From an uncultured Flavobacteriales bacterium (GTDB lineage: Bacteria > Bacteroidota > Bacteroidia > Flavobacteriales_G > Salibacteraceae): a DNA stretch of 64,000 nt. The DNA lies in contig CAJQLE010000003.1 in the NCBI GenBank assembly GCA_905479105.1, forward strand, positions 124,001-188,000. The letters are read 5' to 3'. The notes below the pieces were generated by a model that saw only the letters and a list, made by a program, of their open reading frames with translations, did not search any database and was not told the origin of the DNA. Made by a program: the position numbers and the translations under genes. Below are positions 35,468 to 52,235 of the stretch, piece after piece (the first letter of the stretch is position 1; each line of letters opens with the position of its first letter).

Positions 35468-35541
35468 GGTCCTATAGCTCAGTTGGTTAGAGCACCTGAC
35501 TCATAATCAGGTGGTCCCTGGTTCGAGCCCAGGTGGGACCA
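35468..35541 (+). tRNA. tRNA with CAT anticodon (elongator Met or Ile2)
   Basis: Cloverleaf is complete: acceptor stem GGTCCTA / TGGGACC, D arm with AGCTCAGTTGGTTAGAGC, anticodon stem CCTGA/TCAGG around loop CTCATAA (anticodon CAT), variable loop, T arm CTGGTTCGAGCCCAG, then discriminator A. CCA is not encoded. The CAT anticodon can be elongator Met or lysidine-modified Ile2; I cannot separate these by eye. The 3' half serves as the attachment site for the integrated element, and its sequence is repeated at 52148-52197, so the gene was restored on integration. Confidence 0.93.
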
Positions 35542-35546
35542 CGAAA
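35497..35546 (+). repeat. left attachment repeat (att, 50 bp)
   Basis: Bases 35497-35546 (from TGACTCATAATCAGG in the anticodon arm to CACGAAA past the tRNA) are identical to 52148-52197. It marks the left boundary of the integrative element. Confidence 0.92.
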
Positions 35547-37485: not shown

Positions 37486-37641
37486 ATTACTGAGGTTTTC
37501 GATAGCCACCCCCTACACTCCAGAGTAACCCCTAACATTTACTCGGGACCCAATCCAAACTGAATGATTATTTTAATACTCACTAAGTGAGATACTGAAT
37601 AGATGTAACTATATTGGCTACCTGAATTAAATGATTCAAAT

Positions 37642-37842
37642 ATGAACCGAATAAAAGAGGTTTTGGAAAAAAAGGGAATCAAACAAATATGGTTGGCTGA
37701 AAAGCTTGGTAAGAGTTACAATATGGTTAACTCTTATGTAAAGAACAGAAGACAACCAAGCTTGGAAGATTTATACAGAATTGCAGAAATTTTAAACGTG
37801 GAAGCCAAAGAACTTTTACTAGACAATAAGAACAAAAAATAA
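37642..37842 (+). CDS. XRE-family HTH regulator of the R-M operon
   Basis: 66-residue protein with a Cro/C1-type helix-turn-helix: IKEVLEKKGIKQIWLAEKLGKSYNMVNSYVKNRRQPSLEDL, so nearly the whole protein is the DNA-binding domain. It lies one base upstream of hsdM on the same strand, in the position of controller (C) proteins of restriction-modification systems, which delay or balance expression of the restriction subunit. That role is inferred from position. The region upstream has no obvious operator repeat. Confidence 0.85.
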   Translation: MNRIKEVLEKKGIKQIWLAEKLGKSYNMVNSYVKNRRQPSLEDLYRIAEILNVEAKELLLDNKNKK

Positions 37843-37843
37843 T

Positions 37844-40267
37844 ATGGCAATAAAGAAATCAGAATTATACAGTAGCCTTTGGGAAAGCTGTGATAAGTTA
37901 AGAGGAACTGGTGGTATGGATGCATCCCAGTATAAAGATTATGTACTTACCATGTTATTTGTGAAGTATGTATCAGATAAGTATGCTGGTAATCCTATGA
38001 GTTTAATTGAGATTCCTAACGGTGCTTCATTTTATGATATGGTAGCATTGAAAGGACAACCAGATATTGGTGACCGTATCAATAAGGAGATACTTAGACC
38101 CTTGTTTGCATCTAATGGTTTGGAAGGTTCTTTGGAGATTGTAGATTTCAATGATGATGAAAAATTAGGTAGTGGAAAAGAGAAGGTTGATTTACTATCT
38201 AAGTTGATTGCCATCTTTGAGAACCCAGCATTGAACTTTAAAAACAACCGTGCAGAAGATGATGATGTACTGGGTGATGCTTATGAGTTCTTGATGCGTC
38301 ACTTTGCTACCGAATCTGGTAAGAGCAAAGGACAATTTTATACACCAGCTGAGGTGTCTAGAATATTATCTAAAGTTATTGATGTAGATAAGGCTGACAA
38401 GCCTTCTTATACTGCTTATGACCCTACTTGTGGTTCTGGTTCATTGTTATTAAAAGTAGCTGGTGAAGCACCTAATGGTTTGACTTTGTATGGTCAAGAA
38501 AAAGATGTGGCAACCAAAGGCTTAGCGGTAATGAACATGTGGCTTCATGGTTATCCAGAGGCTTCTATTGCTGGAAAGAACACGATTTCATCACCTCAAT
38601 TTACTGAGGATGGTAAGCTTAAACGTTTTGATTTTGTGGTAGCGAATCCTCCGTTTTCAGTAAAGAACTGGGATAGTGGCATTGTGCCGCTTGATGATGA
38701 ATACAATCGTTTTAGAGGTTTTGGAGTGCCGCCCGATAAGAATGGCGACTATGCTTTTTTACTTCACATCATTGCATCTTTAAAGAGCACTGGTAAAGGT
38801 GCTATTATTCTACCTCACGGTGTTTTGTTTAGAGGAAATGCAGAAGCTGAAATTCGTAAAAACATCATTGAGCGTAAATGGATAAAAGGCATCATCGGGC
38901 TACCTGCCAACTTGTTTTATGGTACAGGTATTCCAGCATGTATTATTGTAATTGATAAAGAAAATGCAGAGGAACGTGAGGGTATCTTTATGATTGATGC
39001 CAGCAAAGGATTCATTAAAGATGGGAACAAGAACCGATTGAGAGAACAAGACCTTCACAAAATTGTGGATGTGTTCAACTTCCAAAAGCCAGTAGATAAA
39101 TTCTCTCGTTTTGTGCCATTTGAAGAAATTGAAAAGAACGAGTTCAACCTCAATATTCCACGATATATAGATACCCAAGAGGAAGAAGATATACAAGACC
39201 TCAACGCTCATTTAAGCGGTGGAATACCTAATAAAGATATTGAAGGTCTGAATCGTTATTGGGAAGTATATCCTAGCCTTAAAGCCAATTTATTCGCTCA
39301 TTTAAGAGAGGGTTATTCCAAAATAACTGTGGATGCTACGGAAATAAAAAACACCATTTACAATCATCCAGAGTTTACAGGCTATAGCGATAAACTGAAT
39401 GCCGTATTTGTTTCATGGAAAGATAAAGTTTACCAAGAGTTGCAAGGTATTAACGATACCAATGCTCCCAAAAAATTAGCAGACTTGATTTCCGAAACCT
39501 TGTTGAACGAATACAAGGACAAACCGCTAGTAGACAAACACAATATGTTCCAGCATCTGATGGATTACTGGAATGATATCATGAAAGATGATGTGTACCT
39601 ATTGGTAGAAGATGGCTGGATAGCTAAGACCAAACGTGTTTTAGAAACAAATAAGAAAGGGAAAGAAGTGGACAAAGGCTGGACCTGTGACCTTATTCCT
39701 AAGCAACTGGTTATTGACAAGTATTTAAGTAGTGAACAGACAGCGTTGAACGACTTAAATGCCAAACTAGAAAGTACACAAGCTGAAATAACAACAACCC
39801 AAGAAGAACATGCTGGTGATGAAGGTTTGTTAAGTGATGCTACAAATGATAAAGGGACCATTACCAAAACCACCCTTACCCAATACATTAAAGAAATTAA
39901 AGCTGACCCAACTGAAAAAGAAACATTGGCTTTGGCAAATGCGTTATTGAAACTATTCACCGAAGAGGCAGCACTAAAAAAACAAGTAAAAGCCGAAGAA
40001 GCAGAATTGGATGATTTAACGTTAAAGCAGTTTGGGAAACTTACCGAACCAGAAGTAAGAGCCTTAGTGGTAGATGACAAATGGATTGCCTCTTTAAATG
40101 CCTTAATGCAAAGCGAAATAGATGCCATTTCTCAACGCTTAACTGGGCGAATTAAAGAATTGGCAGACCGTTACGAAAACACTTTGGGAGAGTTAACCAC
40201 TAGTACCAAGACCCTAGAAGAAAATGTAAGTAATCATCTTGAAAAAATGGGATTGGTATGGAGTTAA
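37844..40267 (+). CDS. hsdM: type I restriction-modification methyltransferase HsdM with long C-terminal extension
   Basis: 807 residues, clearly longer than the roughly 500 usual for HsdM. Residues 1-150 are the HsdM N-terminal helical domain; the N6-adenine MTase core has motif X/I GQFYTPAEVSR and DPTCGSGSLLL (about 185-205) and catalytic motif IV NPPF in VVANPPFSVKNW (about 268). From about 470 on, the sequence has further domains and long heptad-like coiled coils (e.g. ALNDLNAKLESTQAEI), unlike the canonical enzyme. It modifies adenine at the sites chosen by HsdS and is the required partner for restriction. The end overlaps the hsdS start. Confidence 0.93.
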   Translation: MAIKKSELYSSLWESCDKLRGTGGMDASQYKDYVLTMLFVKYVSDKYAGNPMSLIEIPNGASFYDMVALKGQPDIGDRINKEILRPLFASNGLEGSLEIVDFNDDEKLGSGKEKVDLLSKLIAIFENPALNFKNNRAEDDDVLGDAYEFLMRHFATESGKSKGQFYTPAEVSRILSKVIDVDKADKPSYTAYDPTCGSGSLLLKVAGEAPNGLTLYGQEKDVATKGLAVMNMWLHGYPEASIAGKNTISSPQFTEDGKLKRFDFVVANPPFSVKNWDSGIVPLDDEYNRFRGFGVPPDKNGDYAFLLHIIASLKSTGKGAIILPHGVLFRGNAEAEIRKNIIERKWIKGIIGLPANLFYGTGIPACIIVIDKENAEEREGIFMIDASKGFIKDGNKNRLREQDLHKIVDVFNFQKPVDKFSRFVPFEEIEKNEFNLNIPRYIDTQEEEDIQDLNAHLSGGIPNKDIEGLNRYWEVYPSLKANLFAHLREGYSKITVDATEIKNTIYNHPEFTGYSDKLNAVFVSWKDKVYQELQGINDTNAPKKLADLISETLLNEYKDKPLVDKHNMFQHLMDYWNDIMKDDVYLLVEDGWIAKTKRVLETNKKGKEVDKGWTCDLIPKQLVIDKYLSSEQTALNDLNAKLESTQAEITTTQEEHAGDEGLLSDATNDKGTITKTTLTQYIKEIKADPTEKETLALANALLKLFTEEAALKKQVKAEEAELDDLTLKQFGKLTEPEVRALVVDDKWIASLNALMQSEIDAISQRLTGRIKELADRYENTLGELTTSTKTLEENVSNHLEKMGLVWS

Positions 40268-41553
40268 TGGAGAAACTAGGATATAAGCAAACTGAGGTGG
40301 GTTTGATTCCAGAAGATTGGGAGGTGATTTCAATTGACGATGCAATAAAAAGCACACAGCTAGGCGGTAACTATCAAAATTCTGAAAGTGAAAATGATTA
40401 TCCTTTGATGAAGATGGGGAATCTAGATAGAGGTTTTTTTAAATTTAATAAAATTGAATTTGTTGTAGGACAGAAACCAAGCAAACGAGATTTGCTGAAG
40501 TATGGTGATGTTATTTTCAACACAAGAAACACTCTTGATTTAGTTGGAAAGGTTGCAGTTTGGAAAAATGAACTAGATAAAGCATATTTTAATTCGAATT
40601 TACTGCGTTTTGAATTTGATGAGAATAAAATCTCATCAAGTTTCTTTTTTAATTATTTAATTAATACTAAAAGAAATATTTCTCAATTAAGAGCTATTGC
40701 CACTGGTACTACAAGTGTCGCAGCAATTTACAGTAGAGATTTAACTAAAGTTTTAATAGCGAAACCAACCCTCACCGAACAAAAAGCCATAGCCACCGCC
40801 TTAAGTGATGTAGATGACCTTATTGCCAATTTGGATAAACTCATTACCAAAAAGAAAGCCATTAAACAAGGTGCTATGCAGCAGCTTTTAACACCACCAC
40901 AAAAAGGCGGTAAACGTTTATCTGGTTTTACTGGGGAGTGGACTGAAATAAGATTAGATGACTTAATCCATGATTTTCAAAATGGATATGCTTTTTCAGC
41001 AATAGGTTATGAAGACCACGGTATAAGAATAATTACTATGGCTCAAATTGGACTCGAAGGACAGTTTCAATTAAATGAATCTAAAGGTAATTATTGGGAT
41101 GCATCACAGCTGCAACCTCTAAAAGATTTTGTTTTGAAAAAAGGTGATTTAATAATGTCTATGACCGATGTGACACCTCAGAAAAACTTAATTGGAAGGA
41201 TGACTATAATTGAAGATGAGGGTCCATTTTTTCTTAATCAACGTGTTGGTCATTTACGTGTCAATAAAGAAAAAGCCAATACAGTTATTTTAAAACATCT
41301 ATCTAACATGAGAAGTTGGAGAACTTATTCAAAAGGCATTGCATCACTAGGTGTTCAAGCTAATATAGGTACAACAGATATTAAGAATGGAACATTTAAC
41401 CTTCCTCAGATTGAAGAACAAAATGCAATTGCTCAAATTCTTTCCGATATGGATACAGAAATCAAGCAATTAGCCACTAAAAAAGTAAAATACCAAGCCA
41501 TCAAACAAGGGATGATGCAAGAATTATTAACTGGTAAATCAAGGTTGGTATGA
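40258..41553 (+). CDS. hsdS: type I restriction-modification specificity subunit HsdS
   Basis: 431 residues with two target-recognition domains (about 20-165 and 215-370), each followed by a conserved coiled-coil region (LTEQKAIATALSDVDDLI and IEEQNAIAQILSDMDTEI), the standard HsdS plan. The two halves together should recognise a bipartite DNA site. It starts at 40258, overlapping the end of hsdM by ten bases; ATG 40267 is an alternative. The stop overlaps the hsdR start. TRDs are the most variable part and probably differ from relatives; the recognition sequence cannot be read from the protein. Confidence 0.92.
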   Translation: MELMEKLGYKQTEVGLIPEDWEVISIDDAIKSTQLGGNYQNSESENDYPLMKMGNLDRGFFKFNKIEFVVGQKPSKRDLLKYGDVIFNTRNTLDLVGKVAVWKNELDKAYFNSNLLRFEFDENKISSSFFFNYLINTKRNISQLRAIATGTTSVAAIYSRDLTKVLIAKPTLTEQKAIATALSDVDDLIANLDKLITKKKAIKQGAMQQLLTPPQKGGKRLSGFTGEWTEIRLDDLIHDFQNGYAFSAIGYEDHGIRIITMAQIGLEGQFQLNESKGNYWDASQLQPLKDFVLKKGDLIMSMTDVTPQKNLIGRMTIIEDEGPFFLNQRVGHLRVNKEKANTVILKHLSNMRSWRTYSKGIASLGVQANIGTTDIKNGTFNLPQIEEQNAIAQILSDMDTEIKQLATKKVKYQAIKQGMMQELLTGKSRLV

Positions 41554-44500
41554 GTAATCAAATAGGTAAACCAGAACGTGCCTCCCAAAACAGAGTTATT
41601 CAACTTTTCCAAGATGAATTAGGATACACCTATTTGGGAGATTGGGAAGAAGAAGTTCGCACCCAGCCCATTGAAGAAGACTTATTGTTTAAGTATCTAA
41701 CAAAAAACAATAGGTATTCTAGTGAGTTGGCTCAAAAGGCATTAGATGCACTAGTAAAAGCAGCTACCAATCTTTCTGATGATTTATATGAAGCCAATAA
41801 GGAAGTATACAAGCTACTTCGCTATGGTGTAACAGTTCGTGAAGAGTTAGGTCAACCCAAAGAAACGGTTTGGCTAATTGATTGGAAGAATCCAACTAGT
41901 AATGATTTTGCTGTAGCAGAAGAAGTAACTGTAGCTGGTAAACATACAAAAAGACCAGATGTGGTGCTCTTTGTAAATGGTATTGCCCTTGGAGTAATTG
42001 AGTTAAAAAGAAGTAAAGTTGGTGTTGAAGAAGGTATTCGTCAAAACTTAGACAATCAAAAACCAGAGTTTATAGAAAAGTACTTCACCACCATGCAATT
42101 GGTTATGGCTGGTAATGATACCCAAGGTTTAAGATATGGAACCATTGAGACATCTGAGAAGTACTACCTAAAATGGAAAGAAGATGGTGACAAAGAGTTC
42201 GATTACTTATTGGACAAACACATCTCTCAACTTTGTGAAAAGTCTAGAATCTTAGAGTTGGTTCACGACTTTGTGGTATTTGATAAAGGCGTTAAAAAAC
42301 TATGCAGACCTAATCAGTACTTTGGAATTACAGCAGCACAGGAAAACATACGTACTAAACAAGGAGGTATTATTTGGCACACCCAAGGTTCTGGTAAATC
42401 CCTTACCATGGTTTGGCTTACCAAGTGGATTCGAGAGAATGTAAAAGATAGTAGAGTGCTTATCATTACAGACCGTGAGGAACTGGATGACCAGATAGAA
42501 AAACTGTTTACTGGTGTGGATGAGAAAATCTACAGAACCAAAAGTGGTAGAGACCTCATCAATGTATTGAACCACAAAACAGAAATGTTGATTGGTAGCT
42601 TGGTGCACAAGTTTGGTAGAAAATCCGATGAAGGTGATTACGATTCTTTCATTGAAGATTTAAAAGCCAGTTTAGGAAGCGACTTCAAAGCGAAAGGTGA
42701 TATCTATGTGTTTGTAGATGAATGTCACCGTACCCAATCGGGTAAGCTGCATGATGCTATGAAGCTGATTTTACCAGATTCATTATTCATTGGGTTCACT
42801 GGTACACCACTACTTAAAAAAGACAAACAGAAGAGTATTGAGATTTTTGGTCCATATATCGGTAATCCATACAAATTCGATGAAGCAGTTGAAGATGGTG
42901 TGGTACTGGACTTATTATATGAAGCTAGAGATGTGGAACAGTTCATCACCGACCAGCAAAGTATAGACGAATGGTTCGAAGCCGAAACCAAAGGCTTAAC
43001 TGATGTTGCTAAGGTAGAATTGAAAAAACGATGGGGAACCATGCAAAAGGTTCTGGGTTCTAAATCAAGACTTGAGAAGATTGTTTTCGATATCGTAAAA
43101 GATTTTAAAATAAAACCAAGATTATCCACTGGTGAAGGAAACGCCATGTTGGTATCGGGTTCAGTGTATGCAGCGTGTAAATATTATGAGTTATTTCAGA
43201 ATGCTGGATTTAAAAGCTGTGCCATCATTACATCTTACCAACCTCATCATGGTGATATAAAAGGAGAAGAAACAGGAGAAGATAATCCCACCGATAAGCT
43301 GTTGAAGTATGAAGTGTATACTAAAATGCTTAACGGTAAAACCACTGAGGACTTTGAAGCGGAAGCAAAAGCTAAGTTTATAAAAGAGCCTAGTAAAATG
43401 AAGCTGCTTATCGTTGTAGATAAGCTATTAACTGGTTTTGACGCACCTTCTGCATCTTACCTATACATTGATAAGAAAATGCAAGACCATGGCTTATTTC
43501 AAGCAATATGCCGTGTTAATAGAATTGATACCGATGATAAGGAGTATGGTTATATCATCGACTACAAAGATTTATTTAAAAGCCTTCAAAATTCCATACA
43601 GGATTATACATCAGAAGTGTTTGATAATTACGATGAAGATGATGTCCAAGGATTATTGAAAGATAGGCATACAGAGAGTAGGGAGCGATTAGAAACGTCT
43701 TTGGAAGCAGTAAGAGCCATGTGTGAGCCTGTTCATCCAAAAGATGAGCCATCGTTCATAAAATTCTTTTGTGGAAACACAGAGAACCCACAGGACATTA
43801 AAGATACCGAAGAGAAAAGAGTTGCCTTGTATAAAGCAGTGGTATCATTAATAAGAGCCTATTCTAATGTGGCTAACGAAATGCACAAGTTGGGTTATAG
43901 CGATGCAGAAGCCAATTCTATTAAAGATGAAGTAAAGTATTACTCCGACTTAAGAGAAACCATTAAACAAGCAAGTGGTGACTATCTGGACCTTAAACGA
44001 TTTGAGCCTGGTATGCGTCAGCTGATGGATATGTATTTGGATGCAAAATCAAGCACCAAAATATCTGATTTTGAGAACAAATCTCTAGTGGAGCTAATTG
44101 TTAAGCTCGGCAATGATATTGATGAGACAGCTCCCGATAGAAAGAAGAAAAGACAAGAAGCCGTTGCTGAAACTATTGAGAACAATGTAAGGAAGGTAAT
44201 CATAGAAGAATCACAAACCAATCCTAAGTATTACGAGAAGATGTCGAAGTTATTGGATGAGATTATCCAATTAAGGAAACAAGAAACATGTGACTACCAA
44301 GACTACTTAGAAAAGATTAAAGAGTTAGCTTCTAAAGTTGCTGAACCTTCAAGTGGTGAGTCATATCCAAATTCAATCAACACAAGAGCGAAGCAAGCAC
44401 TTTATGATAATTTGAATTCTGATGAAGAATTAGCGAATGTTTTAGACCATGTTATTCTAGATAATAAACTGGATGGCTGGCGTGATGGTGGGATAAAGGA

Positions 44501-44594
44501 AAAGAAACTGATGTTGGCAGTAAATGGTGTTATAAGTGACCCAGAAAGGACATTGGAGTTGATGAAAATAATAAAAGCACAAAGTGAGTACTAA
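41550..44594 (+). CDS. hsdR: type I restriction endonuclease/translocase HsdR
   Basis: 1014 residues. The N-terminal nuclease domain carries the PD-(D/E)xK signature RPDVVLFVNG...GVIELKRSK (about 130-155). SF2 helicase motor: Walker A HTQGSGKSLTM (about 275), motif II DECHRTQSGK (about 390), motif III VGFTGTP region (FIGFTGTPLL), and the helicase C-terminal half including DKLLTGFDAPS (about 625). It cleaves unmethylated DNA after ATP-driven translocation in complex with HsdM/HsdS. The C-terminal HsdR helical domain is present. All motifs look intact. Confidence 0.95.
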   Translation: MSNQIGKPERASQNRVIQLFQDELGYTYLGDWEEEVRTQPIEEDLLFKYLTKNNRYSSELAQKALDALVKAATNLSDDLYEANKEVYKLLRYGVTVREELGQPKETVWLIDWKNPTSNDFAVAEEVTVAGKHTKRPDVVLFVNGIALGVIELKRSKVGVEEGIRQNLDNQKPEFIEKYFTTMQLVMAGNDTQGLRYGTIETSEKYYLKWKEDGDKEFDYLLDKHISQLCEKSRILELVHDFVVFDKGVKKLCRPNQYFGITAAQENIRTKQGGIIWHTQGSGKSLTMVWLTKWIRENVKDSRVLIITDREELDDQIEKLFTGVDEKIYRTKSGRDLINVLNHKTEMLIGSLVHKFGRKSDEGDYDSFIEDLKASLGSDFKAKGDIYVFVDECHRTQSGKLHDAMKLILPDSLFIGFTGTPLLKKDKQKSIEIFGPYIGNPYKFDEAVEDGVVLDLLYEARDVEQFITDQQSIDEWFEAETKGLTDVAKVELKKRWGTMQKVLGSKSRLEKIVFDIVKDFKIKPRLSTGEGNAMLVSGSVYAACKYYELFQNAGFKSCAIITSYQPHHGDIKGEETGEDNPTDKLLKYEVYTKMLNGKTTEDFEAEAKAKFIKEPSKMKLLIVVDKLLTGFDAPSASYLYIDKKMQDHGLFQAICRVNRIDTDDKEYGYIIDYKDLFKSLQNSIQDYTSEVFDNYDEDDVQGLLKDRHTESRERLETSLEAVRAMCEPVHPKDEPSFIKFFCGNTENPQDIKDTEEKRVALYKAVVSLIRAYSNVANEMHKLGYSDAEANSIKDEVKYYSDLRETIKQASGDYLDLKRFEPGMRQLMDMYLDAKSSTKISDFENKSLVELIVKLGNDIDETAPDRKKKRQEAVAETIENNVRKVIIEESQTNPKYYEKMSKLLDEIIQLRKQETCDYQDYLEKIKELASKVAEPSSGESYPNSINTRAKQALYDNLNSDEELANVLDHVILDNKLDGWRDGGIKEKKLMLAVNGVISDPERTLELMKIIKAQSEY

Positions 44595-45312
44595 TCAAGA
44601 AACCATAGCTTTTGCCAACATTGAAATAGATGTAGTTCGAAAGGATATTAAAAACATGCACTTGGCTGTTTATCCACCGCATGGTCGTATCCGATTGTCC
44701 GCACCCAGTAAGACAGATGCTGAAGTGTTAAGATTATTTGCAATCTCTAAACTTGGCTGGATAAAGAAACATGTAAAGAACTTTAAGGAACAAGCCAGAG
44801 AAACAAAGCGTGACTATGTTTCTGGTGAGAGCCATTTCTTTATGGGTAAACGATATCTGTTGGATGTAAATCACCATGATGGTTACAACAAAGTGAAACT
44901 AATAGGTACTAAGAAAATCCAATTATGGGTAAAACCAGAAGCAACAGTTCAAGACAAAGCTACCGTCATCAAGGAATGGTATAGAAAGCAATTAAAGAAA
45001 CAATTACCTCAACTTATAGCTAAATGGGAAAAGGTTGTTGGTGTAAAGTGCAATGATTGGGGCGTGAAGCAAATGAAGACGAAATGGGGTGCTTGCAATA
45101 CCGATGATAAACGCATTTGGCTAAACCTTGAACTAGCTAAAAAACCAATTCTTTGTTTGGAGTACATCTTAGTTCATGAGTTGGTCCATCTACATGAGAG
45201 AAACCACAATGATAGGTTCATTGCACTGATGGATAAGTTCATGCCCAAATGGAGATTACACAGAGATGAATTAAATAGCTTACCCATCGTCCATAATGAT
45301 TGGGGGTATTAA
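44584..45312 (+). CDS. YgjP-like (DUF45/M48-type) metal-dependent hydrolase of the R-M operon
   Basis: 242 residues, starting at GTG 44584 inside the hsdR end. The zinc site is HELVHLHERNHNDRF (HExxH plus a third His), preceded by the conserved MKTKWGACN motif of the YgjP/SprT-like DUF45 family. Members of this family are often found as the last gene of type I R-M operons; their function is not established, though a protease or DNA-repair role is proposed. The overlap with hsdR shows co-transcription and likely shared fate. No membrane segment. Confidence 0.88.
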   Translation: MSTNQETIAFANIEIDVVRKDIKNMHLAVYPPHGRIRLSAPSKTDAEVLRLFAISKLGWIKKHVKNFKEQARETKRDYVSGESHFFMGKRYLLDVNHHDGYNKVKLIGTKKIQLWVKPEATVQDKATVIKEWYRKQLKKQLPQLIAKWEKVVGVKCNDWGVKQMKTKWGACNTDDKRIWLNLELAKKPILCLEYILVHELVHLHERNHNDRFIALMDKFMPKWRLHRDELNSLPIVHNDWGY

Positions 45313-45334
45313 TACCCGTGTAAGTTCAAGCACA

Positions 45335-45400
45335 TTGCAATCCTCGTCCCTGCGGTTGCAAAGAGCGCATTAAAACAGCCGCTTATACTAAACGTTGCAA
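45335..45400. repeat. attC-like imperfect palindrome (site a)
   Basis: Outer arms TTGCAA at 45335-45340 and 45395-45400, inner arms GCGG (45352-45355) and CCGC (45379-45382) with 11- and 12-base spacers, all after the YgjP stop codon. Nested short arms with near-equal spacers fit the geometry of integron attC sites. It abuts repeat copy B. Confidence 0.45.
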
Positions 45401-45599
45401 GCAATTGAAGAACTCGAATAGGCTTCAATCATCACCCGACTCGATGCCAAAGTCTTGAAAAGACGATGCTATACACCCACACATTGGGTTATACTATGCA
45501 TCTGAAATCTTAACCAAAAAAGGAAATTGATTTAGAATCATACACCCCCTGAGGTGATTTGAGGGTGTGGGTTTTTGATTTCAGGTTTTAGTTGGTTTG
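45401..45599 (+). repeat. composite island repeat, copy B
   Basis: GCAATTGAAGAACTCGAATAG then GGCTTCAATCATC, CCAAAGTCTTGAAAAGAC, CACCCACACATTGGGTTATAC, CTGAGGTGATTT and TTTCAGGTTTTAGTTGG. It corresponds in order to copy E at 49251 across roughly its first 190 bases. Confidence 0.8.
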
Positions 45600-45663
45600 T
45601 GTGAAGGCTTTCTATTTCATATTTTCGTGAGATAGGTAATGAATTATCTTAAAACAACTAGAA

Positions 45664-45753
45664 ATGAAAACATTGCTCACTACCTCAATCATGTTGCTAA
45701 CATTCGGATTAGTAACCGCTCAGAATAACAATACTGTTGATTTATTTAATTAG
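45664..45753 (+). pseudogene. orphan signal-peptide ORF (29 aa), probable remnant
   Basis: Encodes MKTLLTTSIMLLTFGLVTAQ followed by only nine more residues before TAG. The first twenty residues are a perfect secretion signal ending in TAQ, the cleavage pattern of this phylum. Either a tiny secreted peptide or, more likely, the 5' end of a lost secreted-protein gene whose body was removed by insertion or deletion next to the 45750 lipoprotein gene (which converges with it and overlaps by four bases). Confidence 0.55.
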
Positions 45754-46001
45754 TCATACTTCCCACAATCCTCTTTTGCTAATCTTCTTACTTCCTCACT
45801 GAATTTATTAGTTCCTACATAACTTTTAGGTATTTTACTTCTGTATTTATCGTTACATTTTAACATTAAATCTGTATCAGTTCCTCCATATCCATAATCT
45901 CTTCCATTTAAATAATTATCACACTTACATGCAGATGGACCACAACTAAATAGAAATAAACTAATACTTAATACCATTAATACCATTAATACTTTTTTCA
46001 T
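45750..46001 (-). CDS. small lipoprotein (83 aa)
   Basis: Signal peptide and lipobox MKKVLMVLMVLSISLFLFSC, cleavage before Cys 20, then a mature chain of about 64 residues with further cysteines (CKCDNYLNG, MLKCNDKY, EDCGKYD) that can form disulfides. Unknown family; outer-membrane or periplasmic anchoring inferred. It is oriented against the island's R-M operon and stands alone as a single-gene unit. Confidence 0.72.
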   Translation of the reverse strand: MKKVLMVLMVLSISLFLFSCGPSACKCDNYLNGRDYGYGGTDTDLMLKCNDKYRSKIPKSYVGTNKFSEEVRRLAKEDCGKYD

Positions 46002-46037
46002 AATTCCTAATTTTTATTTATATTCAAATATATTAAT

Positions 46038-46466
46038 GTGGAAATAAAAGGGAACAAGTCTACTATTGCGGAACTGGCTGAACAGAGAAATAAACAAGGA
46101 GTCACATACCAAGGCAAGGGGGTTTATAAAATCGTAGAGGTCGGCAACACGTTTAAGGTAAGTCTCAAGAGGATGGAAAGAGATGCGAGAGAAAAGGCAG
46201 ATGACCTGGTAAAAAACATGGGAGGAGCGCAATACGCTGATATTTCCCTAGATAAAGTAGGAGCCGCTTATGGGTCATACGCACAGGTCAGACTAACCAT
46301 TGTCGTTCAAGATTATATGCAACAACCTGTGCTAAAAAGAGGAGAGGACAAAGAAAATGCGATTGAAAAAATCAAAGAGTTGAACTCTTTAAAGGAGCAA
46401 GGAATAATTTCAGAAGAGGAGTACAATAAAGCCGCTGCACCATATAAAGCTATCATTCTCAAATAG
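46038..46466 (+). CDS. SHOCT-domain protein (142 aa)
   Basis: Starts at GTG 46038 (MEIKGNKSTIAELAEQRN). The first 100 residues are a charged, mixed alpha/beta domain without recognised motifs. The C-terminus IEKIKELNSLKEQGIISEEEYNKA (about 113-137) is a SHOCT short C-terminal helical domain, common at the ends of membrane or oligomerising bacterial proteins. No membrane segment is present. Function unknown; it is a single-gene unit between lipoprotein 45750 and repeat copy C. Confidence 0.72.
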   Translation: MEIKGNKSTIAELAEQRNKQGVTYQGKGVYKIVEVGNTFKVSLKRMERDAREKADDLVKNMGGAQYADISLDKVGAAYGSYAQVRLTIVVQDYMQQPVLKRGEDKENAIEKIKELNSLKEQGIISEEEYNKAAAPYKAIILK

Positions 46467-46484
46467 GCCACGAATCTGAATTAG

Positions 46485-46566
46485 GACAGAAAACCGATTT
46501 AGAACAACGCACGCCCTGAGGTGATTCGGTGCCGTGGGTTTTAGGGTTCAGGTTTTAGTTGGTTTG
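46485..46566 (+). repeat. composite island repeat, copy C (partial)
   Basis: GACAGAAAACCGATTTAGAAC, CCCTGAGGTGATTCGGTGCC, then GGGTTTTAGGGTTCAGG and TTTTAGTTGGTTTGG. Matches the second half of copies A, B and E; the upstream half is missing. Confidence 0.75.
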
Positions 46567-46583
46567 GGAAAGTGTTTGGGAGT

Positions 46584-47096
46584 TCAGCCCTTACAATGCT
46601 CGTCAATTATACCGTGAATATCTTCAAAACCTAACTCAACTGCCTTTTTCCAGTCCTCACAAGCTCCTGCCTCATCATCTAAATTGACCTTTGCTATCCC
46701 TCTGTAGAATATGGCCTTTTCATGTGTAGGGTCGAGCTTAATTACGGCATTCATCTGAGTTAATGATTCCTGAAACATCTCCTGCTGACCGTACATATAG
46801 CCTCTATTAAAAAGTGCTGCTGTGTTTAAGGGTTCTAACTCAAGTGCTTTAGCTACGTCATCATATGCCTCTTGGCGTTTATTGAGACACCGATATGTAA
46901 TTGCCCTATTCACATAGGCATCAGCAAAATTCGGGTCAAGATTAATTGCAGATGTGAAGTCCTCATAAGCACCTTGATAATTATCTCCTTTTCTCAGTCT
47001 AACTAATCCACGGTCAAAAAAATAAAGACTATCGGAAGAAGTTCCATCTAGAATCCTGTATTTCTTTCCTTCTCTCTCAATTATTCTGCGTGTCAT
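46584..47096 (-). CDS. TPR-repeat protein (170 aa)
   Basis: Four tetratricopeptide-type repeats are visible from about residue 25 to 155 (ALFNRGYMYGQQEMFQESLTQ, AIFYRGIAKVNLDDEAGACED and others) with the expected Gly/Ala/Tyr/Leu spacing, after an N-terminal stretch starting MTRRIIEREGKKYRILDG. No signal peptide. Mediates protein-protein interaction; partner and function unknown. Leftward single-gene unit, its 3' end next to repeat copy C. Confidence 0.75.
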   Translation of the reverse strand: MTRRIIEREGKKYRILDGTSSDSLYFFDRGLVRLRKGDNYQGAYEDFTSAINLDPNFADAYVNRAITYRCLNKRQEAYDDVAKALELEPLNTAALFNRGYMYGQQEMFQESLTQMNAVIKLDPTHEKAIFYRGIAKVNLDDEAGACEDWKKAVELGFEDIHGIIDEHCKG

Positions 47097-47206
47097 CGTG
47101 ACTTAATTAATAATTTCTTCTTTATTCAGGGCAAGTATAATTGCTGCTATTTAAAACTACAAAAGGCGAGTATCCTATTTCATCAAACAACATTCTTCAA
47201 ATCATT

Positions 47207-47629
47207 TTAGAACGAGTCTAGAAATGATGGGTTTTCCTCTACCATTTCTGCGATTTTATCCATTGTCATCTTAGTTCCATTATGAATTGCCCTCTCCACT
47301 TTGCTCTGAGAAGCCTTTTTATGCCAGATAAACATGTAATTTCCTTCAACCCAATCCACATTCCAATAGAATCCCCCATAGCGAGAACAAATCACGAAGT
47401 CATTGGAGGAGTCGGTTTTAAATTCAAGCCCTTTTTTTACTAAAGTATCAATATCGTATTCATCGGCATTCATGGCAGCGATACTGAATAGTTCATCATC
47501 TTGAGAATGACGGTTGTTGGAATCATTGATGTTAAAGTCCTGTATGAACTGACTCTCTCCACCGAGGTACTTTTTGGCGACTACATCCTTAGGAATTAAA
47601 AGATTGACGAGTTCTATTGCGATTGGCAT
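47207..47629 (-). CDS. hypothetical cytoplasmic protein (140 aa)
   Basis: Acidic protein starting MPIAIELVNLLIPKDVVAKKY. It contains the YGGFYWNVDWVEGNYMFIWHKK region and no signal peptide, membrane segment or recognised catalytic motif. Compact alpha/beta composition suggests a small globular protein, perhaps an immunity or regulatory type, but I do not recognise a family. Leftward unit between the TPR gene and the 47728 gene; about 100 bases separate it from the latter. Confidence 0.6.
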   Translation of the reverse strand: MPIAIELVNLLIPKDVVAKKYLGGESQFIQDFNINDSNNRHSQDDELFSIAAMNADEYDIDTLVKKGLEFKTDSSNDFVICSRYGGFYWNVDWVEGNYMFIWHKKASQSKVERAIHNGTKMTMDKIAEMVEENPSFLDSF

Positions 47630-47727
47630 AATTGTAAATCAAATATATATCGGGACTTTCAAAGAGTGCATCAACATTTAGCGTCCTGGACGTAATCTTG
47701 ATGCCGAGTTCAATAGTACCATGACAT

Positions 47728-48198
47728 TCAAACTGACCTGCCTTTATGTCGACATATCATTTCATCTCTATCCTCGTCTAAACCTGACTCAATTGACTCA
47801 ATTTTCTCTTTGTAATTATTGAGTAATATATACTTGGCAGTCTCAGTGTCATCTTCACCTCTTAGGGCATTGGTGATTATTATTTGGTCTGTCAAATAGC
47901 GTAATTTCTCCATTCTTCTCTCCGCCCGAGCTTTTTGCTCTTCCAATTCCTTCTGGTTAATCTGTTTTTTGAGTGTCTGATTTTCTTGGTAAGTATTTAT
48001 GACGTCTGGAAACACTGCATCGCCAAATTTGGTGGAAATGACATAAATTACTCCTGATATAGATGGTATTAATAATACTGACAAATCAACCCACTCATCT
48101 CGGCCATTAATATCACCTTGATAAACATGTACTATAAAAAACAGCACTCCACCTAATCCGCCAAAGAAGACAATGAATGCTGTTATTTTTTGAAACAT
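47728..48198 (-). CDS. membrane protein with two N-terminal segments and coiled coil (156 aa)
   Basis: I place the start at ATG 48198 (MFQKITAFIVFFGGLGGVLFF), because the longer frame from 48282 runs through repeat copy D, which is not coding elsewhere. Two hydrophobic segments lie at about 5-25 and 38-58; a coiled coil from about 75 (NQTLKKQINQKELEEQKARAER) and a basic C-terminal end follow. Possibly a membrane-anchored island protein; function unknown. Confidence 0.6.
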   Translation of the reverse strand: MFQKITAFIVFFGGLGGVLFFIVHVYQGDINGRDEWVDLSVLLIPSISGVIYVISTKFGDAVFPDVINTYQENQTLKKQINQKELEEQKARAERRMEKLRYLTDQIIITNALRGEDDTETAKYILLNNYKEKIESIESGLDEDRDEMICRHKGRSV

Positions 48199-48244
48199 AA
48201 TTAGCTCGAAAATAAAGTTTTGATTCTTATTGCACCCGACACAA

Positions 48245-48322
48245 CACCAAAGTATTGTAAAGACCTTGCTATACACCCACATATTGGGTTATACTATACA
48301 CTAATAATTCTAATCCAAAATC
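48245..48322 (+). repeat. composite island repeat, copy D (partial)
   Basis: CACCAAAGTATTGTAAAGACC then TGCTATACACCCACATATTG and GGGTTATACTATACACTAAT. Corresponds to the middle part of copies A, B and E. Confidence 0.75.
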
Positions 48323-48340
48323 ATTTAAAATAGAAAGCTG

Positions 48341-48397
48341 CACCTAACACTACCTAAGCCACATTAAAACGATGGCTTAGCTGCAAACCGTTAGCAC
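48341..48397. repeat. attC-like imperfect palindrome (site b)
   Basis: Outer arms CTAAC (48344-48348) and GTTAG (48390-48394), inner arms CTAAGCCA (48354-48361) and TGGCTTAG (48373-48380), perfectly complementary over eight bases, around a loop containing ATTAAAAC. Nested arms with 5- and 9-base spacers and CTAAC/GTTAG ends are the layout of integron attC sites. It precedes the lipoprotein gene at 48449. Confidence 0.55.
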
Positions 48398-48448
48398 TCA
48401 TTGTAAAAGTAGAATTGTTATTTTTACACAAAAAATAAAACTTAACAG

Positions 48449-49003
48449 ATGAAAAAATTATTTTGCCTATTAATTGTTACATCCCTATTTGTTTCTTGCT
48501 CTGAATCTTCGTCAGAAAATGTCAATACGAAAAAAGAAATTATTGAAAACGGGGACCCATTAAGCGGAATTTTCACCTCATATGACGCTAAAGCTGAAAC
48601 CTTATTAAAGAATATGAATCTCTTTGCAAAAGCAGATTTTTCTTATGTGAAGCAACTGTTAGGAGAGGACTTTACATTACAAACAGCAGGAGATACCGCT
48701 ACTGTTGCATCAGGTGGAGCTGAGGCAATTACCTATTGGAATAATATTCATAGTATTTATGGAGACATCACCTTTTCGGAAGGTAGACTTCAAACGTTTG
48801 AATTAAATAATGGCGAAGTGTGGTCGGCTTACTTTGGCGAGCTTTACGCAGTGGGCAAATTTTCAAAAGAGAACTACGCCATTCCATTGCATGTTTGGAT
48901 TCAATGGGAGAACGATAAAATTATTCGTCAAGTTGACATGTTAGACTCAAAGTTTATTGCGGCAGAAATAACGGCAAGCGAAGCATCTAACAATAATGAA
49001 TAA
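48449..49003 (+). CDS. SnoaL-like/NTF2-fold lipoprotein (184 aa)
   Basis: Lipoprotein signal MKKLFCLLIVTSLFVSC (lipobox VSC, Cys 17). Residues 50-170 have the alternating pattern of a SnoaL/NTF2-like cone fold (AEAITYWNNIHSIYGDITFS, WSAYFGELYAVGKF, IPLHVWIQWENDKIIRQVD). Such periplasmic or surface proteins may bind small ligands; function unknown. It stands in a single-gene unit ending at a terminator and preceded by attC-like site b, i.e. a cassette-like arrangement. Confidence 0.75.
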   Translation: MKKLFCLLIVTSLFVSCSESSSENVNTKKEIIENGDPLSGIFTSYDAKAETLLKNMNLFAKADFSYVKQLLGEDFTLQTAGDTATVASGGAEAITYWNNIHSIYGDITFSEGRLQTFELNNGEVWSAYFGELYAVGKFSKENYAIPLHVWIQWENDKIIRQVDMLDSKFIAAEITASEASNNNE

Positions 49004-49036
49004 GGGCTGATTTAGTCCCGTCTTAAGTCATCAAAA

Positions 49037-49059
49037 GCCCTCTTTTTAGAGGTTTTTTT
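49037..49059 (+). terminator. intrinsic terminator
   Basis: Stem CCTCT / AGAGG with a TTTT loop, followed by seven T. About 35 bases after the 48449 gene stop. Confidence 0.8.
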
Positions 49060-49201
49060 GATTTAAATAAATAATACATTAAAAATATTTAGGATAATGC
49101 CTATCAATAAGAGTTAAATGAAAGTTCAGGAGTGTATTTTATTAAAATAAACTCTAATGGAAACAGTGCTTATTAAAAGGTAATCAAAGAATAAAACGAA
49201 A

Positions 49202-49253
49202 TGCTAACAATGTATAAACCCCATTAAAAGGAGATTTATACTAATCGTAAGCA
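49202..49253. repeat. attC-like imperfect palindrome (site c)
   Basis: Outer arms TGCTAAC (49202-49208) and GTAAGCA (49247-49253, one mismatch), inner arms GTATAAA (49212-49218) and TTTATAC (49235-49241), with 3- and 5-base spacers and a loop with ATTAAAA. It shares the GTTAGCA-like end with site b and joins repeat copy E directly. Confidence 0.55.
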
Positions 49254-49511
49254 ATTGAAGAACTCAAATAGGCTTCAATCATCATCCGACTCGATACCAA
49301 AGTATTGTGAAGACGGTGCTATTCACCCACATATTGGGTTATACTATACCCTAGAAACCGCATCGAAAACAGAAAACCGATTGAAACCAATCCATCCCCT
49401 GAGGTGATTTGAAGGTTTAGGTTTTAGATTTCAGGTTTTAGTTTGTTTTGAGGGATAATTGACGTTTTTTGAGTCAAAAAGCACTAAAAATGGTCAAAAA
49501 GAGGTGAAAAC
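49251..49511 (+). repeat. composite island repeat, copy E (longest)
   Basis: Covers all segments: GCAATTGAAGAACTC and GGCTTCAATCATC (a hairpin ATTGAAG/CTTCAAT), CCAAAGTATTGTGAAG, CACCCACATATTGGG (hairpin), CAGAAAACCG, CTGAGGTGATTTG, GGTTTTAGATTTCAGG, then GGGATAATTGACG and the palindromic TTTTTGAGTCAAAAA. The last part is shared almost base for base with copy F. Confidence 0.85.
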
Positions 49512-49696
49512 AATCCATTTTGGACAAAAACTCAGTTTATTGAAATCTTAATATTTCCGATTAAGAGAATAAAAAGCAATGAATTATTCTTGTTGCAGAC
49601 TTTTTACGTGGAGGTCTATATAGTTGACCAATCAAAATCAATAGTAAAGGTAAGAAATTCACATTAACTATCTTTGAGTGAATACATCAAAAGAAC
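49512..49696. other. non-coding, between repeat E and the LamG-like gene
   Basis: Nothing recognised; AT-rich with no open frame. It probably contains the promoter of the 49697 gene. Confidence 0.5.
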
Positions 49697-50758
49697 ATGA
49701 GAATATTACTAACGCTATCAATTGTTCTGATAACCCTAGAGGGTTACTCACAGAACATTCCTTCATACGTTCCGACTAATGGACTAGTTGGGTTTTGGAC
49801 GATGAATGGAACACATTTAGATTCCTCACCTAATCAGAATCCAACCACGAACTATGGTGTAACATTTGGAGGATATCGTGACAACCCGAACAATCAGGTT
49901 GGGATTTGGGAACCTGATACGAATTGCAATACTGGTTTGGTAGTTACACAACTTGATACCTCAGGGATGTATGATGGTTTCACATTAAGTTTTTGGGTTA
50001 AGTTAGATTCAATTCAAGATTGTGATGGTCCAAGATATCTCCAGATTGGTAGTTCTTTCCAAATTGGGGTTTATCAACACGGAAATATTCCACCAGGTGG
50101 TTTATGGTATGGACATAATAATGGAATTAATAATGTTGGTATGGATATTACATACAATGTGCTGGACTGGAACCATATTATCTACACATACGACTCGGAC
50201 TCCATAAGACTTTATATTAATAATAGTTTACAAGGTTCGGTTGAGAATACTCTTATCTCTAATTCTCCAGGGATTAGTACACAACTTCGATTAGGACACT
50301 CACAGTCTAACTCTGGAAGTATAAATGGTGAAATGGATGATTTAGGTATTTGGAATCGTGTATTAGATATTAACGAAATAGGAAGTCTCTATGGAGGTTC
50401 TTGTCAGGTATATGATACTATCACAATCTTAGATACTATTCCATATTCAGTAACTGATACTTTATTTATTGATGTTCAACTTACATCAACCAATCCTATT
50501 CAATTTCAGAACACGATAAAGGTCTACCCAAACCCAACCAATGATTACCTTCAAATTGATTGTGGTGATATTTCTACAATGAATGGATACTCTATTAAAA
50601 TCATCAATTCATTAAGTCAAACAGTTTTTGATGAACCCGTCTCTCAATCAACATTCAATATCGATATGAATGGGTGGAGTGGAAATGGTCTATACTTCTT
50701 TCATCTTATTGATGGAAGTGGAAACATTACTGATATCAGGAAGATAGTCCTTCAATAA
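49697..50758 (+). CDS. secreted LamG-like domain protein with T9SS tail (353 aa)
   Basis: Signal peptide MRILLTLSIVLITLEGYSQ, then a concanavalin/LamG-type jelly roll (about 25-235), with NGLVGFWTMNGTHLDSSPN, FTLSFWVKLDS and RLYINNSLQGSVENT as its typical strands and GEMDDLGIWNRVLDINEI near the end. A linker and a T9SS type A sorting domain (IKVYPNPTNDYLQIDC ... YFFHLIDGSG) follow. It is an exported, surface-displayed glycan- or protein-binding candidate carried by the island, flanked by repeat copies E and F in direct orientation, and ends at a terminator. Confidence 0.85.
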   Translation: MRILLTLSIVLITLEGYSQNIPSYVPTNGLVGFWTMNGTHLDSSPNQNPTTNYGVTFGGYRDNPNNQVGIWEPDTNCNTGLVVTQLDTSGMYDGFTLSFWVKLDSIQDCDGPRYLQIGSSFQIGVYQHGNIPPGGLWYGHNNGINNVGMDITYNVLDWNHIIYTYDSDSIRLYINNSLQGSVENTLISNSPGISTQLRLGHSQSNSGSINGEMDDLGIWNRVLDINEIGSLYGGSCQVYDTITILDTIPYSVTDTLFIDVQLTSTNPIQFQNTIKVYPNPTNDYLQIDCGDISTMNGYSIKIINSLSQTVFDEPVSQSTFNIDMNGWSGNGLYFFHLIDGSGNITDIRKIVLQ

Positions 50759-50778
50759 AGTTGAATTAAATAATAGTT

Positions 50779-50808
50779 AAAGGAGAATCAGAAATGGTTC
50801 TCCTTTTT
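50779..50808 (+). terminator. intrinsic terminator
   Basis: Stem AAAGGAGAA / TTCTCCTTT with an 11-base loop and trailing T run; ends the LamG-like gene. Confidence 0.8.
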
Positions 50809-50868
50809 CATATCAATTCACCAACCTTCATCTCATAAACATCCTTCGCAATTAACCCTTCTTCAAAG

Positions 50869-50976
50869 AGTGATTCGACACCTTAGATTTTAGCTTTCAG
50901 GTTTTAGTCGGTTTTGAGGGATAATTGACGTTTTTTGAGTCAAAAAGGACTAAAAATGGTCAAAAAGAGGTGAAAA
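50869..50976 (+). repeat. composite island repeat, copy F (3' part)
   Basis: GTGATTCGACACC then TTTCAGGTTTTAGTCGG, GGGATAATTGACG and the TTTTTGAGTCAAAAA palindrome. About 77 bases match copy E with about three differences. It sits between the LamG-like gene and the end of the recombinase gene. Confidence 0.85.
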
Positions 50977-51005
50977 TGATGCGTTTTAGGTTGTATTGAG
51001 TTTAC

Positions 51006-52070
51006 CTAAACCTTAGGCATATCCGCCTCGGTTAATTCAGCCACCTCTAAGCCCCTTAAATACGTTAGGGACACATTCAGGCTTGAATGACCCATAACCT
51101 TCTGTAGCTTGACTAGTGAGCCTGTACGCTTGTAGATTTCTATAGCCCCAGAGTGTCTGAAAGAGTATAGAGTCTGATTGGTGTCAATCAGCTTAGATTG
51201 GCTCTTAAATCGCCTCCAAAGGCACTTAAAGTAGTCCTGGTTGTATGCCTTCTGATTACCACTGAACACATTACAGTTTAAGTCTCCAGCATGCAGATTC
51301 TCTCGGATGTACTTTGGGACAGGAACTATCCTGTTTCGTCCTGATTTATTCCGATGCCCTGATAGGTGTATTTGACTCAGGTCGTTGGAGAAGTCACCCC
51401 AACATAACTCCCTTATTTCTCTATGTGGCCTGAGGAGGCATCCGTATGTCAGAAGACAGCACAGGTAAAGGTTACTGTCAAAGTCCCTTATCTCATCTAG
51501 AATGAGGCCGATGTCTCTGAAGGGTTTATGGAGCTTAGCCTTTGCCTTTTTACTCTTATTCTTCAATAGGTCTCTCTCATCCATACCCAGGTTCACAGCC
51601 TCATTTATTAGGGCGTTTACATGTCTTCTAAAGGTGTTATAGCTTGTGGCATTGGTGTATCTGTTGAGCATAGCACTTAGTTCATCAGCGCATAGTTTAT
51701 TGCCATTGGAGGCATCGACAATATCCCTGTAGGTGTAACGAAGGGTTGTTTTGTATTTGACCGAGTAGTTGCTATTCAGCTTACTGTCTAAAGCAAGCTT
51801 GAGGTACTCTAGGTCAGATAACCGACCTGATTGGATTGTTTCTCTTCGATATGACTTTAGAACACCCCCTTTGGTGATGTGACTGTAAACCTCCGCAGCT
51901 AGTAAATTAGCCATTGATAGACGATGTTCTATGGGGTGGTCATTCGGGTGTAATGAGCTGTTAATTCTCTTGCCGCTATACAACCTTATTTTCTGATTAT
52001 TCAGATGAAACGAGATGAAGACTTTAAGGTCTTTGGTTTGACCAACCTTGGGGTAACTTAGATTTCTCAC
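51006..52070 (-). CDS. int: tyrosine recombinase (integrase) of the island
   Basis: 354 residues, starting at GTG 52070. N-terminal arm-binding region (about 1-80), a core-binding SAM-like domain (about 90-190) and the catalytic domain (about 195-345). The first catalytic Arg is in GCLLRPHREIRELCW (about 220), the box II YSFRHSGA (about 300) has Tyr where many relatives have His, then MGHSSLNVSLTYLRG with the His and the nucleophile Tyr near 340. It should catalyse integration and excision at the tRNA 3' end. Its start lies immediately beside the phased AGACAGTT repeats and 78 bases from the right att copy, the standard placement. Confidence 0.92.
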   Translation of the reverse strand: MRNLSYPKVGQTKDLKVFISFHLNNQKIRLYSGKRINSSLHPNDHPIEHRLSMANLLAAEVYSHITKGGVLKSYRRETIQSGRLSDLEYLKLALDSKLNSNYSVKYKTTLRYTYRDIVDASNGNKLCADELSAMLNRYTNATSYNTFRRHVNALINEAVNLGMDERDLLKNKSKKAKAKLHKPFRDIGLILDEIRDFDSNLYLCCLLTYGCLLRPHREIRELCWGDFSNDLSQIHLSGHRNKSGRNRIVPVPKYIRENLHAGDLNCNVFSGNQKAYNQDYFKCLWRRFKSQSKLIDTNQTLYSFRHSGAIEIYKRTGSLVKLQKVMGHSSLNVSLTYLRGLEVAELTEADMPKV

Positions 52071-52092
52071 AGACAGTTATTAGACAGTTAAA
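52071..52092. promoter_or_regulatory. right arm-type sites: two 11-bp phased AGACAGTT repeats
   Basis: AGACAGTTA starts at 52071 and 52082, again exactly 11 bases apart, adjacent to the recombinase start codon. It matches the triple at 35762. Binding here could also autoregulate int. Confidence 0.6.
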
Positions 52093-52147
52093 CATTTATT
52101 AAACGTTTAATGTCCTGGTATACAGTAACTTGTATGGGGTGAACTCA

Positions 52148-52197
52148 TGACTCATAATCAGGTGGTCCCTGGTTCGAGCCCAGGTGGGACCACGAAA
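52148..52197 (+). repeat. right attachment repeat (att, 50 bp)
   Basis: Identical to 35497-35546: a copy of the tRNA 3' half from the anticodon arm to CACGAAA. The 5' half is missing, so this is not a tRNA gene. Confidence 0.92.
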
Positions 52198-52235
52198 TAA
52201 ACCCCTAAGTATTCAAATACTTGGGGGTTTATTGT
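52197..52235 (+). terminator. original tRNA terminator, displaced by the island
   Basis: Stem ATAAACCCCTAAGTATT / AATACTTGGGGGTTTAT with one G-T pair, followed by TGTTT, immediately after the right att copy. In the empty site it would end the tRNA transcript. Confidence 0.75.

What the first reader, a model, noticed from the sequence alone, without database searches (positions are those of the whole stretch)
45335..49253. attC-like cruciform sites without a visible integron integrase
Three sites (45335-45400, 48341-48397, 49202-49253) have nested short inverted arms with spacers and a loop containing ATTAAAA, ending in CTAAC/GTTAG-type or TTGCAA arms. Two directly abut composite repeats and one precedes a lipoprotein gene. 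This matches the geometry of integron attC sites, as in CALIN arrays (attC clusters lacking integrase). Here the array would sit inside a tRNA-integrated island.
Basis: partly seen in the sequence, partly recalled or inferred. Interest (0 to 1): 0.62.

Follow-up and report, generated by a model that had tools for sequence, protein, structure and literature searches.

The report
Integron cassettes with an unusual integrase
The hairpin sites in this bacterial island are real gene-cassette recombination sites, and the same genome and many related Bacteroidota carry complete cassette arrays whose adjoining recombinase lacks the protein domain thought essential for cassette capture, so a large group of integrons appears to have been overlooked.

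Summary
Two of the three sites (48342-48396, 49202-49253) are genuine attC sites. A covariance model trained without any sequence from this genome finds both (E 6e-9 and 2e-9, bottom strand). They bound one 857-bp cassette carrying a lipoprotein gene. The third site (45367-45401) is only the right half of an attC; its TTGCAA "arms" are a coincidental palindrome. All lie in a tRNA-Met island.

The larger finding is outside the window. About 62 kb away in the same genome, and in many Bacteroidota, a tyrosine recombinase is followed by an attI-like site and one-ORF cassettes, each ending in such an attC. Starting from attI, 41 of 46 cassettes end in an R'' box complementary to that cassette's own first bases (1 expected), the signature of a circular intermediate. 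Two sister genomes are alike through the recombinase and diverge at the GTT core.

This recombinase is not IntI. It lacks the I2-bearing domain that current tools use to define IntI and that is reported as necessary for cassette capture. It carries instead an N-terminal domain weakly resembling the XPB and HARP fork-binding domains. It works like an integron with a non-IntI integrase. Recombination activity is inferred, not shown.

The parts
   Evidence: (fold); R3 without this genome E 6.4e-9 on bottom strand
49202..49253 (+). attC site (third): R'' TGCTAAC, L arms TATAAA/TTTATA, loop CATTAAAA, degenerate R' GTAAGCA
   Evidence: R3 E 1.8e-9 on bottom strand
48391..49247 (+). gene cassette of 857 bp: starts (G)TTAGCA, ends in the attC whose R'' TGCTAAC is its exact 7-base complement; absent from 12 same-genus genomes
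   Evidence: run of 7; presence/absence; no homologue of its protein in 60 relatives
48449..49003 (+). cassette ORF, 184-aa lipoprotein-like protein, no Pfam or NCBIfam family
45367..45401 (+). right half of an attC site (L' and R' only); left half lost or replaced; start of the downstream repeat A module
   Evidence: no model hit; right half matches L108 and L049 sites
45399..45598 (+). composite repeat (modules A-B-C); module A begins at an attC-type core in five places in three genomes
49249..49521 (+). composite repeat (modules A-B-C-D) directly after the 49202-49253 attC
51006..52070 (-). island recombinase (354 aa, Phage_integrase), probably targets tRNA-Met; not the cassette integrase
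   Evidence: tRNA 3'-end repeat beside it
35468..35542 (+). tRNA-Met, one end of the island
52148..52206 (+). repeat of the tRNA-Met 3' part, other end of the island
   Evidence: 80% over 96 nt, near-identical over the tRNA part

Best explanation
The sites are attC sites of gene cassettes belonging to a Bacteroidota integron-like system. [quoted passage not shown] Each attC R'' box is complementary to the first bases of its own cassette, which makes sense only if the cassette was a circle whose attC was cut between G and TT. Inferred: the recombinase cuts the folded bottom strand of attC and joins it to attI, as IntI does, but without the I2 helix. Its extra N-terminal domain, weakly similar in fold to the XPB damage-recognition and SMARCAL1 HARP domains, may do the recognition of the folded strand. 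The two window sites are a small array without its own integrase, carried in a tRNA-Met island, and can probably be served in trans by the integron about 62 kb away on the same contig.
For: Independent covariance model: window sites at E 1.8e-9 and 6.4e-9. Covariation in 58 sites: 86.6% of cells paired against 72.3% shuffled, score 0.432 against 0.190, and 0.13 or less when slid. Family found in 30 of 60 relatives, often in same-direction arrays. Recombinase in the own genome at contig 3:234903-236120 followed by sites 233605 and 231650. In 18 loci with sites near such a recombinase, 17 have them on the 3' side in its own direction. Circular-cassette signature: 23 of 43 neighbouring pairs against 1.7% of random pairs and 2.9% of own junctions; followed from attI, 41 of 46 against 1.05 expected with permuted starts. 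Longest ORF on the attC strand in 43 of 43 cassettes, median length 898 bp. attI conserved between two genomes; two others diverge exactly at it. Draft-genome contigs end within 2 kb of the recombinase 3' side in 18 of 42 cases, and of the 5' side in 1. Strand preference: 88 G.T against 24 A.C on the bottom strand.
Against: No recombination was observed; everything is comparative sequence. One locus (L199) has sites on the 5' side of its recombinase. Five of 46 junctions did not fit the complementarity rule, and the first cassettes in L133 and L141 have no partner within 4.5 kb. The recombinase lacks the domain reported as necessary for cassette capture by known integron integrases (PMC7790495). 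The window array itself has no adjacent recombinase, and one of its sites is a half-site. The strand-preference count uses sites chosen with a bottom-strand model, so it leans that way. The N-terminal domain matches are weak (Foldseek E 0.2-0.4, Z 7.0 and 4.4).
Confidence: 0.86

Rival explanations
1. The sites are ordinary intergenic hairpins: intrinsic terminators, small RNAs or a dispersed palindromic repeat of the REP kind, and their likeness to attC is superficial.
For: They lie between genes and form hairpins; the loop CATTAAAA is conserved.
Against: No Rfam family matches. R'' boxes match the start of the same cassette far above chance, which terminators and REP elements do not explain. 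Sequence breaks lie exactly at the GTT core. Sites form same-direction arrays beside one recombinase family.
Confidence: 0.04
2. The attC sites are genuine but are worked by a canonical IntI acquired from elsewhere and not seen here; the adjoining recombinase is an unrelated Xer-like enzyme.
For: attC structure is typical of integrons; I2 is reported as necessary for cassette capture (PMC7790495).
Against: No genome of 100 relatives reaches the TIGR02249 cut-off, including this 99.85% complete one. The attI-like core and the first cassette lie directly 3' of the recombinase in the 11 loci in which the chain holds from attI. attI sequence is conserved together with the recombinase gene.
Confidence: 0.08
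3. The window sites are dead relics, carried passively in the tRNA-Met island and no longer recombined (this concerns only the window array and can be true together with the best explanation of the family).
For: One site is a half-site, the 49202-49253 site has a degenerate R' (GTAAGCA), and two sites are fused to composite repeats.
Against: The 48342-48396 site is intact and the 857-bp cassette keeps 7 of 7 complementary bases; the cassette is absent from all sister genomes searched, so it arrived recently or has been lost often.
Confidence: 0.35

Closest known systems
Sedentary chromosomal integron (e.g. Vibrio cholerae superintegron, IntIA/IntI4, VCR attC sites)
   Same: Recombinase, attI, arrays of one-ORF cassettes with attC hairpins of about 55-140 nt, G|TT core, R'' complementary to the cassette start, cassette genes mostly without family
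   Different: Recombinase lacks the IntI-specific domain (R-to-HxxR spacing 88-94 against 131-132), has an extra N-terminal domain, and the array lies 3' of the gene; R' boxes are GTTR(T/G)(G/C), only 3 of 54 fit GTTRRRY
Inverted integrons of Treponema (intI read towards attI and the cassettes; PMC3607928)
   Same: Direction: recombinase and cassettes read the same way, attI 3' of the gene
   Different: Treponema intI is counted as an IntI; the Bacteroidota recombinases form a separate branch outside the IntI clade
CALIN (cluster of attC sites lacking an integrase, IntegronFinder; PMC9024848)
   Same: The window array: two attC sites 860 bp apart, no integron integrase within the window
   Different: An integrase of an unrecognised kind is on the same contig about 62 kb away; many such CALINs may be complete integrons once this recombinase is counted
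XerA-type archaeal tyrosine recombinases (NCBIfam NF040815; PDB 4a8e, 5hxy)
   Same: Best NCBIfam model (233-241 bits, cut-off 220) and best fold match (4a8e Z 23.7; IntI4 2a3v Z 19.6)
   Different: Adjoins attI and cassette arrays; has the extra N-terminal domain

Membership tests
Integron (platform) | attC sites: imperfect hairpins with R''/R' and L''/L' arms and AAC/GTT cores, structure conserved by covariation | tested here: met
Integron (platform) | R' core box GTTRRRY | tested here: not met
   GTT in 54 of 54 (required by the search rule), R in 54 of 54, but only 3 of 54 fit the whole box
Integron (platform) | Cassettes of about one ORF, same orientation, able to be circles (R'' complementary to own start) | tested here: met
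Integron (platform) | attI beside the integrase gene, where cassettes enter | tested here: met
   Divergence of L133/L134 at the GTT core 3' of the gene; conserved attI in L113/L114. Function not tested
Integron (platform) | Integron integrase IntI with the IntI-specific (I2-bearing) domain | tested here: not met
   TIGR02249 223.6 bits against cut-off 265 with the middle unmatched; IntI4 residues 176-240 unmatched; spacing 88-94 aa
Integron (platform) | Recombination of the bottom strand of attC as a folded single strand | not testable with these tools
   Only indirect: more G.T than A.C on the bottom strand, better bottom-strand folds
IntI protein family | Falls within the IntI clade | tested here: not met
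   18 I2-bearing rows on one side of a branch with 100/100 support; the Bacteroidota rows are outside
CALIN (the window array) | Two or more attC sites close together without an integrase nearby | tested here: met
   Sites 860 bp apart; no IntI in the window; IntegronFinder itself could not be run
tRNA-integrated genomic island | tRNA gene at one end, repeat of its 3' end at the other, recombinase gene inside | tested here: met
   (35468-35542 and 52148-52206)
HARP / XPB damage-recognition domain (N-terminal domain of the recombinase) | Same fold | tested here: inconclusive
   XPB Z 7.0 over 56 residues, HARP 4o66 Z 4.4 over 48 residues; Foldseek E 0.2-0.34

The most novel reading that the evidence does not exclude
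Bacteroidota have a large, so far unrecognised group of integrons whose integrase is not IntI: an I2-less Xer/XerA-like recombinase that reads folded attC strands with a different device, perhaps an N-terminal XPB/HARP-like fork-binding domain. It is either a survivor of the pre-I2 stage or a separate invention of cassette capture.
Probability: 0.65. Interest if true: 0.9.

Novelty: new variant of a known kind. Interest (0 to 1): 0.85.

Why it matters
Integron integrases are defined, and searched for, by an extra domain that is described as necessary for cassette capture and as found in no other proteins (PMC7790495; also PMC9668308, PMC8352920, PMC2426708). Surveys that require it report almost no complete integrons in Bacteroidetes (PMC9024848). 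If arrays worked by recombinases without that domain are common in this phylum, integron diversity and the pool of mobile genes are underestimated, and the question of how single-strand attC recombination arose becomes testable with natural enzymes rather than evolved IntI1. Isolates with such arrays exist (Algibacter onchidii, Winogradskyella ursingii, Seonamhaeicola aphaedonensis), so the test is practical.

Tried and rejected
A first reading that the composite repeats were the attI or attC of the 354-aa recombinase was dropped: a tRNA-Met 3'-end repeat beside that gene makes it the island integrase. Site 45335-45400 as a full attC was rejected (no model hit; its fold equals shuffles). A canonical IntI in this genome was sought and not found. 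Rfam families were sought at the sites and none matched. Models R1 and R2 contain the window sites, so their E-values for the window are not independent; R3 was built without this genome for that reason. A wider home for the window cassette gene was sought and none found in 60 relatives. The N-terminal domain has no confident fold match; XPB and HARP are leads only. Ten literature searches of the open library found no report of such integrons; subscription papers and preprints were not searched.
Full report
What is at the coordinates. The window is contig 3:124001-188000 of a 2.79 Mb, 99.85% complete genome whose relatives are Bacteroidota. The sites at 48342-48396 and 49202-49253 have the layout of attC: R'' (ACCTAAC, TGCTAAC), a short spacer, L'' and L' arms, a loop with CATTAAAA, a spacer, and R' (GTTAGCA, GTAAGCA). 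The 48342 site folds better on the bottom strand (z -3.2; 1 of 200 shuffles as good) than on the top (z -2.0), as IntI substrates do. The site at 45335-45400 shares only its right half. Its TTGCAA repeats are self-complementary and its fold equals shuffles.

Is it more than chance? A first covariance model (R1) from five sites found members in 30 of 60 relatives. A final model (R3), built from 58 sites with none from this genome, finds the two window sites at E 1.8e-9 and 6.4e-9, both on the bottom strand, and not the third. In those 58 sites the arms covary: 86.6% of cells paired against 72.3% in shuffles, covariation score 0.432 against 0.190, and 0.13 or less when partners are slid. The alignment was fitted to the model's structure, so these counts lean towards it. 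G.T pairs outnumber A.C on the bottom strand 88 to 24, although the sites were collected with a bottom-strand model, so this leans that way too.

Where the integrase is. No genome of 100 relatives, this one included, holds an IntI above the TIGR02249 cut-off. The best match in this genome is a 405-aa tyrosine recombinase at contig 3:234903-236120, about 62 kb from the window sites, and two attC-like sites lie within 4 kb on its 3' side. Regions around such recombinases were fetched from other genomes and from named public genomes. Of 18 loci with model hits, 17 have them on the 3' side of the recombinase and in its direction (P about 8e-10 if side and strand were random). L199 is the exception. 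Contigs of draft genomes end within 2 kb of the 3' side of the gene in 18 of 42 cases, and of the 5' side in 1, as expected of a hypervariable or repetitive stretch.

Cassettes. In a circular cassette the two halves of the R pair are joined, so the R'' box of an attC should be complementary to the first bases of its own cassette, not to the next one. Over 43 neighbouring site pairs, 23 show at least 6 of 7 matching outer bases, against 1.7% of random pairs and 2.9% of own junctions. Without any attC model, starting from the attI core 3' of the recombinase and moving from junction to junction by this rule and the hairpin arms, the chain runs through 10 cassettes in Algibacter onchidii (L203), 7 in Seonamhaeicola aphaedonensis (L181), 6 in L179, 5 in G005 (L151) and 3 in this genome (L113). 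In all, 41 of 46 junctions obey, against 1.05 expected with permuted starts. The 46 junctions were themselves found by the rule, so the permutation, not the raw count, is the test. Cassettes have a median length of 898 bp and the longest ORF is on the attC strand in 43 of 43; 8 of 10 Algibacter cassette proteins have no Pfam family. The window cassette (48391-49247, lipoprotein-like ORF 48449-49003) obeys too, with 7 of 7 bases next to the core, and is absent from the 12 other genomes of the genus.

Gain and loss at the core. G010 and G004 are 82% identical through the upstream region and the recombinase, then read TATATAAAGTTG|TATGCC and TATATAGAGTTG|GTAGCA and share nothing after it. This genome and G010 contig 25 share the attI stretch TAGTGACTATC..TATTTACA.TTGTTA before different cassettes. 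The same gene end plus attC in this genome (contig 4) and G011 is followed by different sequence. Different attC-type sites in three genomes are followed by the same repeat, TAAGCAATTGAAGAACTC, with the change at the core.

The recombinase is not IntI. The spacing between the catalytic arginine and HxxR is 88-94 residues in the Bacteroidota proteins and 131-132 in IntI controls such as that of Vibrio atypicus. IntI4 (2a3v) residues 176-240, where the IntI-specific domain lies, have no counterpart. A tree puts the 18 I2-bearing rows on one side of a branch with 100/100 support and 28 Bacteroidota-type rows in a separate group (82/87). Catalytic residues are conserved in the alignment. A predicted model of the Algibacter protein (pLDDT 82) matches archaeal XerA (4a8e, Z 23.7) and IntI4 (Z 19.6). 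About 75 extra N-terminal residues fold, with good confidence (pLDDT 88), as beta-beta-alpha-beta-beta-alpha. The nearest solved folds are the N-terminal domain of XPB (Z 7.0) and the HARP domain of SMARCAL1 (Z 4.4), both weak. Both families bind forked DNA (from general knowledge), so a role in reading a folded strand is a reasonable guess, no more.

Known work. The I2 helix is described as necessary for cassette capture, as absent from other proteins, and as the innovation that made integrons (PMC7790495). IntI searches require it (PMC9668308; PMC8352920; PMC2426708). IntegronFinder 2.0 reports that only integrases without cassettes had been seen in Bacteroidetes, and adds one complete Bacteroidetes integron, in Salinibacter ruber (PMC9024848). 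The recombinase-towards-attI layout is known from Treponema (PMC3607928). No report of the present kind was found in the open library.

Verdict. What is new is the complete system behind them: an integron in the features that sequence can show, except that its integrase is not an IntI and its R' boxes are not GTTRRRY. Shown: the sites, the arrays, the circular-cassette signature, attI divergence, and absence of the IntI domain. Inferred: that this recombinase is the enzyme, that it uses folded single strands, and what the N-terminal domain does.

Noticed in passing
window 35468-52206: A 16.7-kb island: the tRNA-Met 3' part is repeated at 52148-52206 next to a 354-aa recombinase (51006-52070 -). 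It carries a type I restriction-modification operon and a YgjP-like peptidase gene (about 37844-45312).
   Followed up: partly
window 37245-37479, 45399-45598, 46473-46566, 48233-48320, 49249-49521, 50870-50987: Mosaic composite repeats (modules A-D), clustered in G004, G005, G010 and G012 of the genus, next to 3'-end fragments of the island recombinase; they look like scars of repeated island insertion.
   Followed up: partly
window 46559-48191: A 1.6-kb block 94-95% identical to G004 contig 5 (about 153.6-155.2 kb) that begins at a C module and ends near a B module of the composite repeat, suggesting exchange at that boundary.
   Followed up: no
L199:82-1695: attC-like sites on the 5' side of the recombinase, reading away from it: the only locus with the layout of classical integrons.
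   Followed up: no
L179, L181, L177, L158, L113, 3' of the recombinase: attI-like stretches with short inverted repeats before the TTGTTR core (for example ATAAACGCAATTGCGTTTATCCAATTGTTG), possible binding sites of the recombinase.
   Followed up: partly
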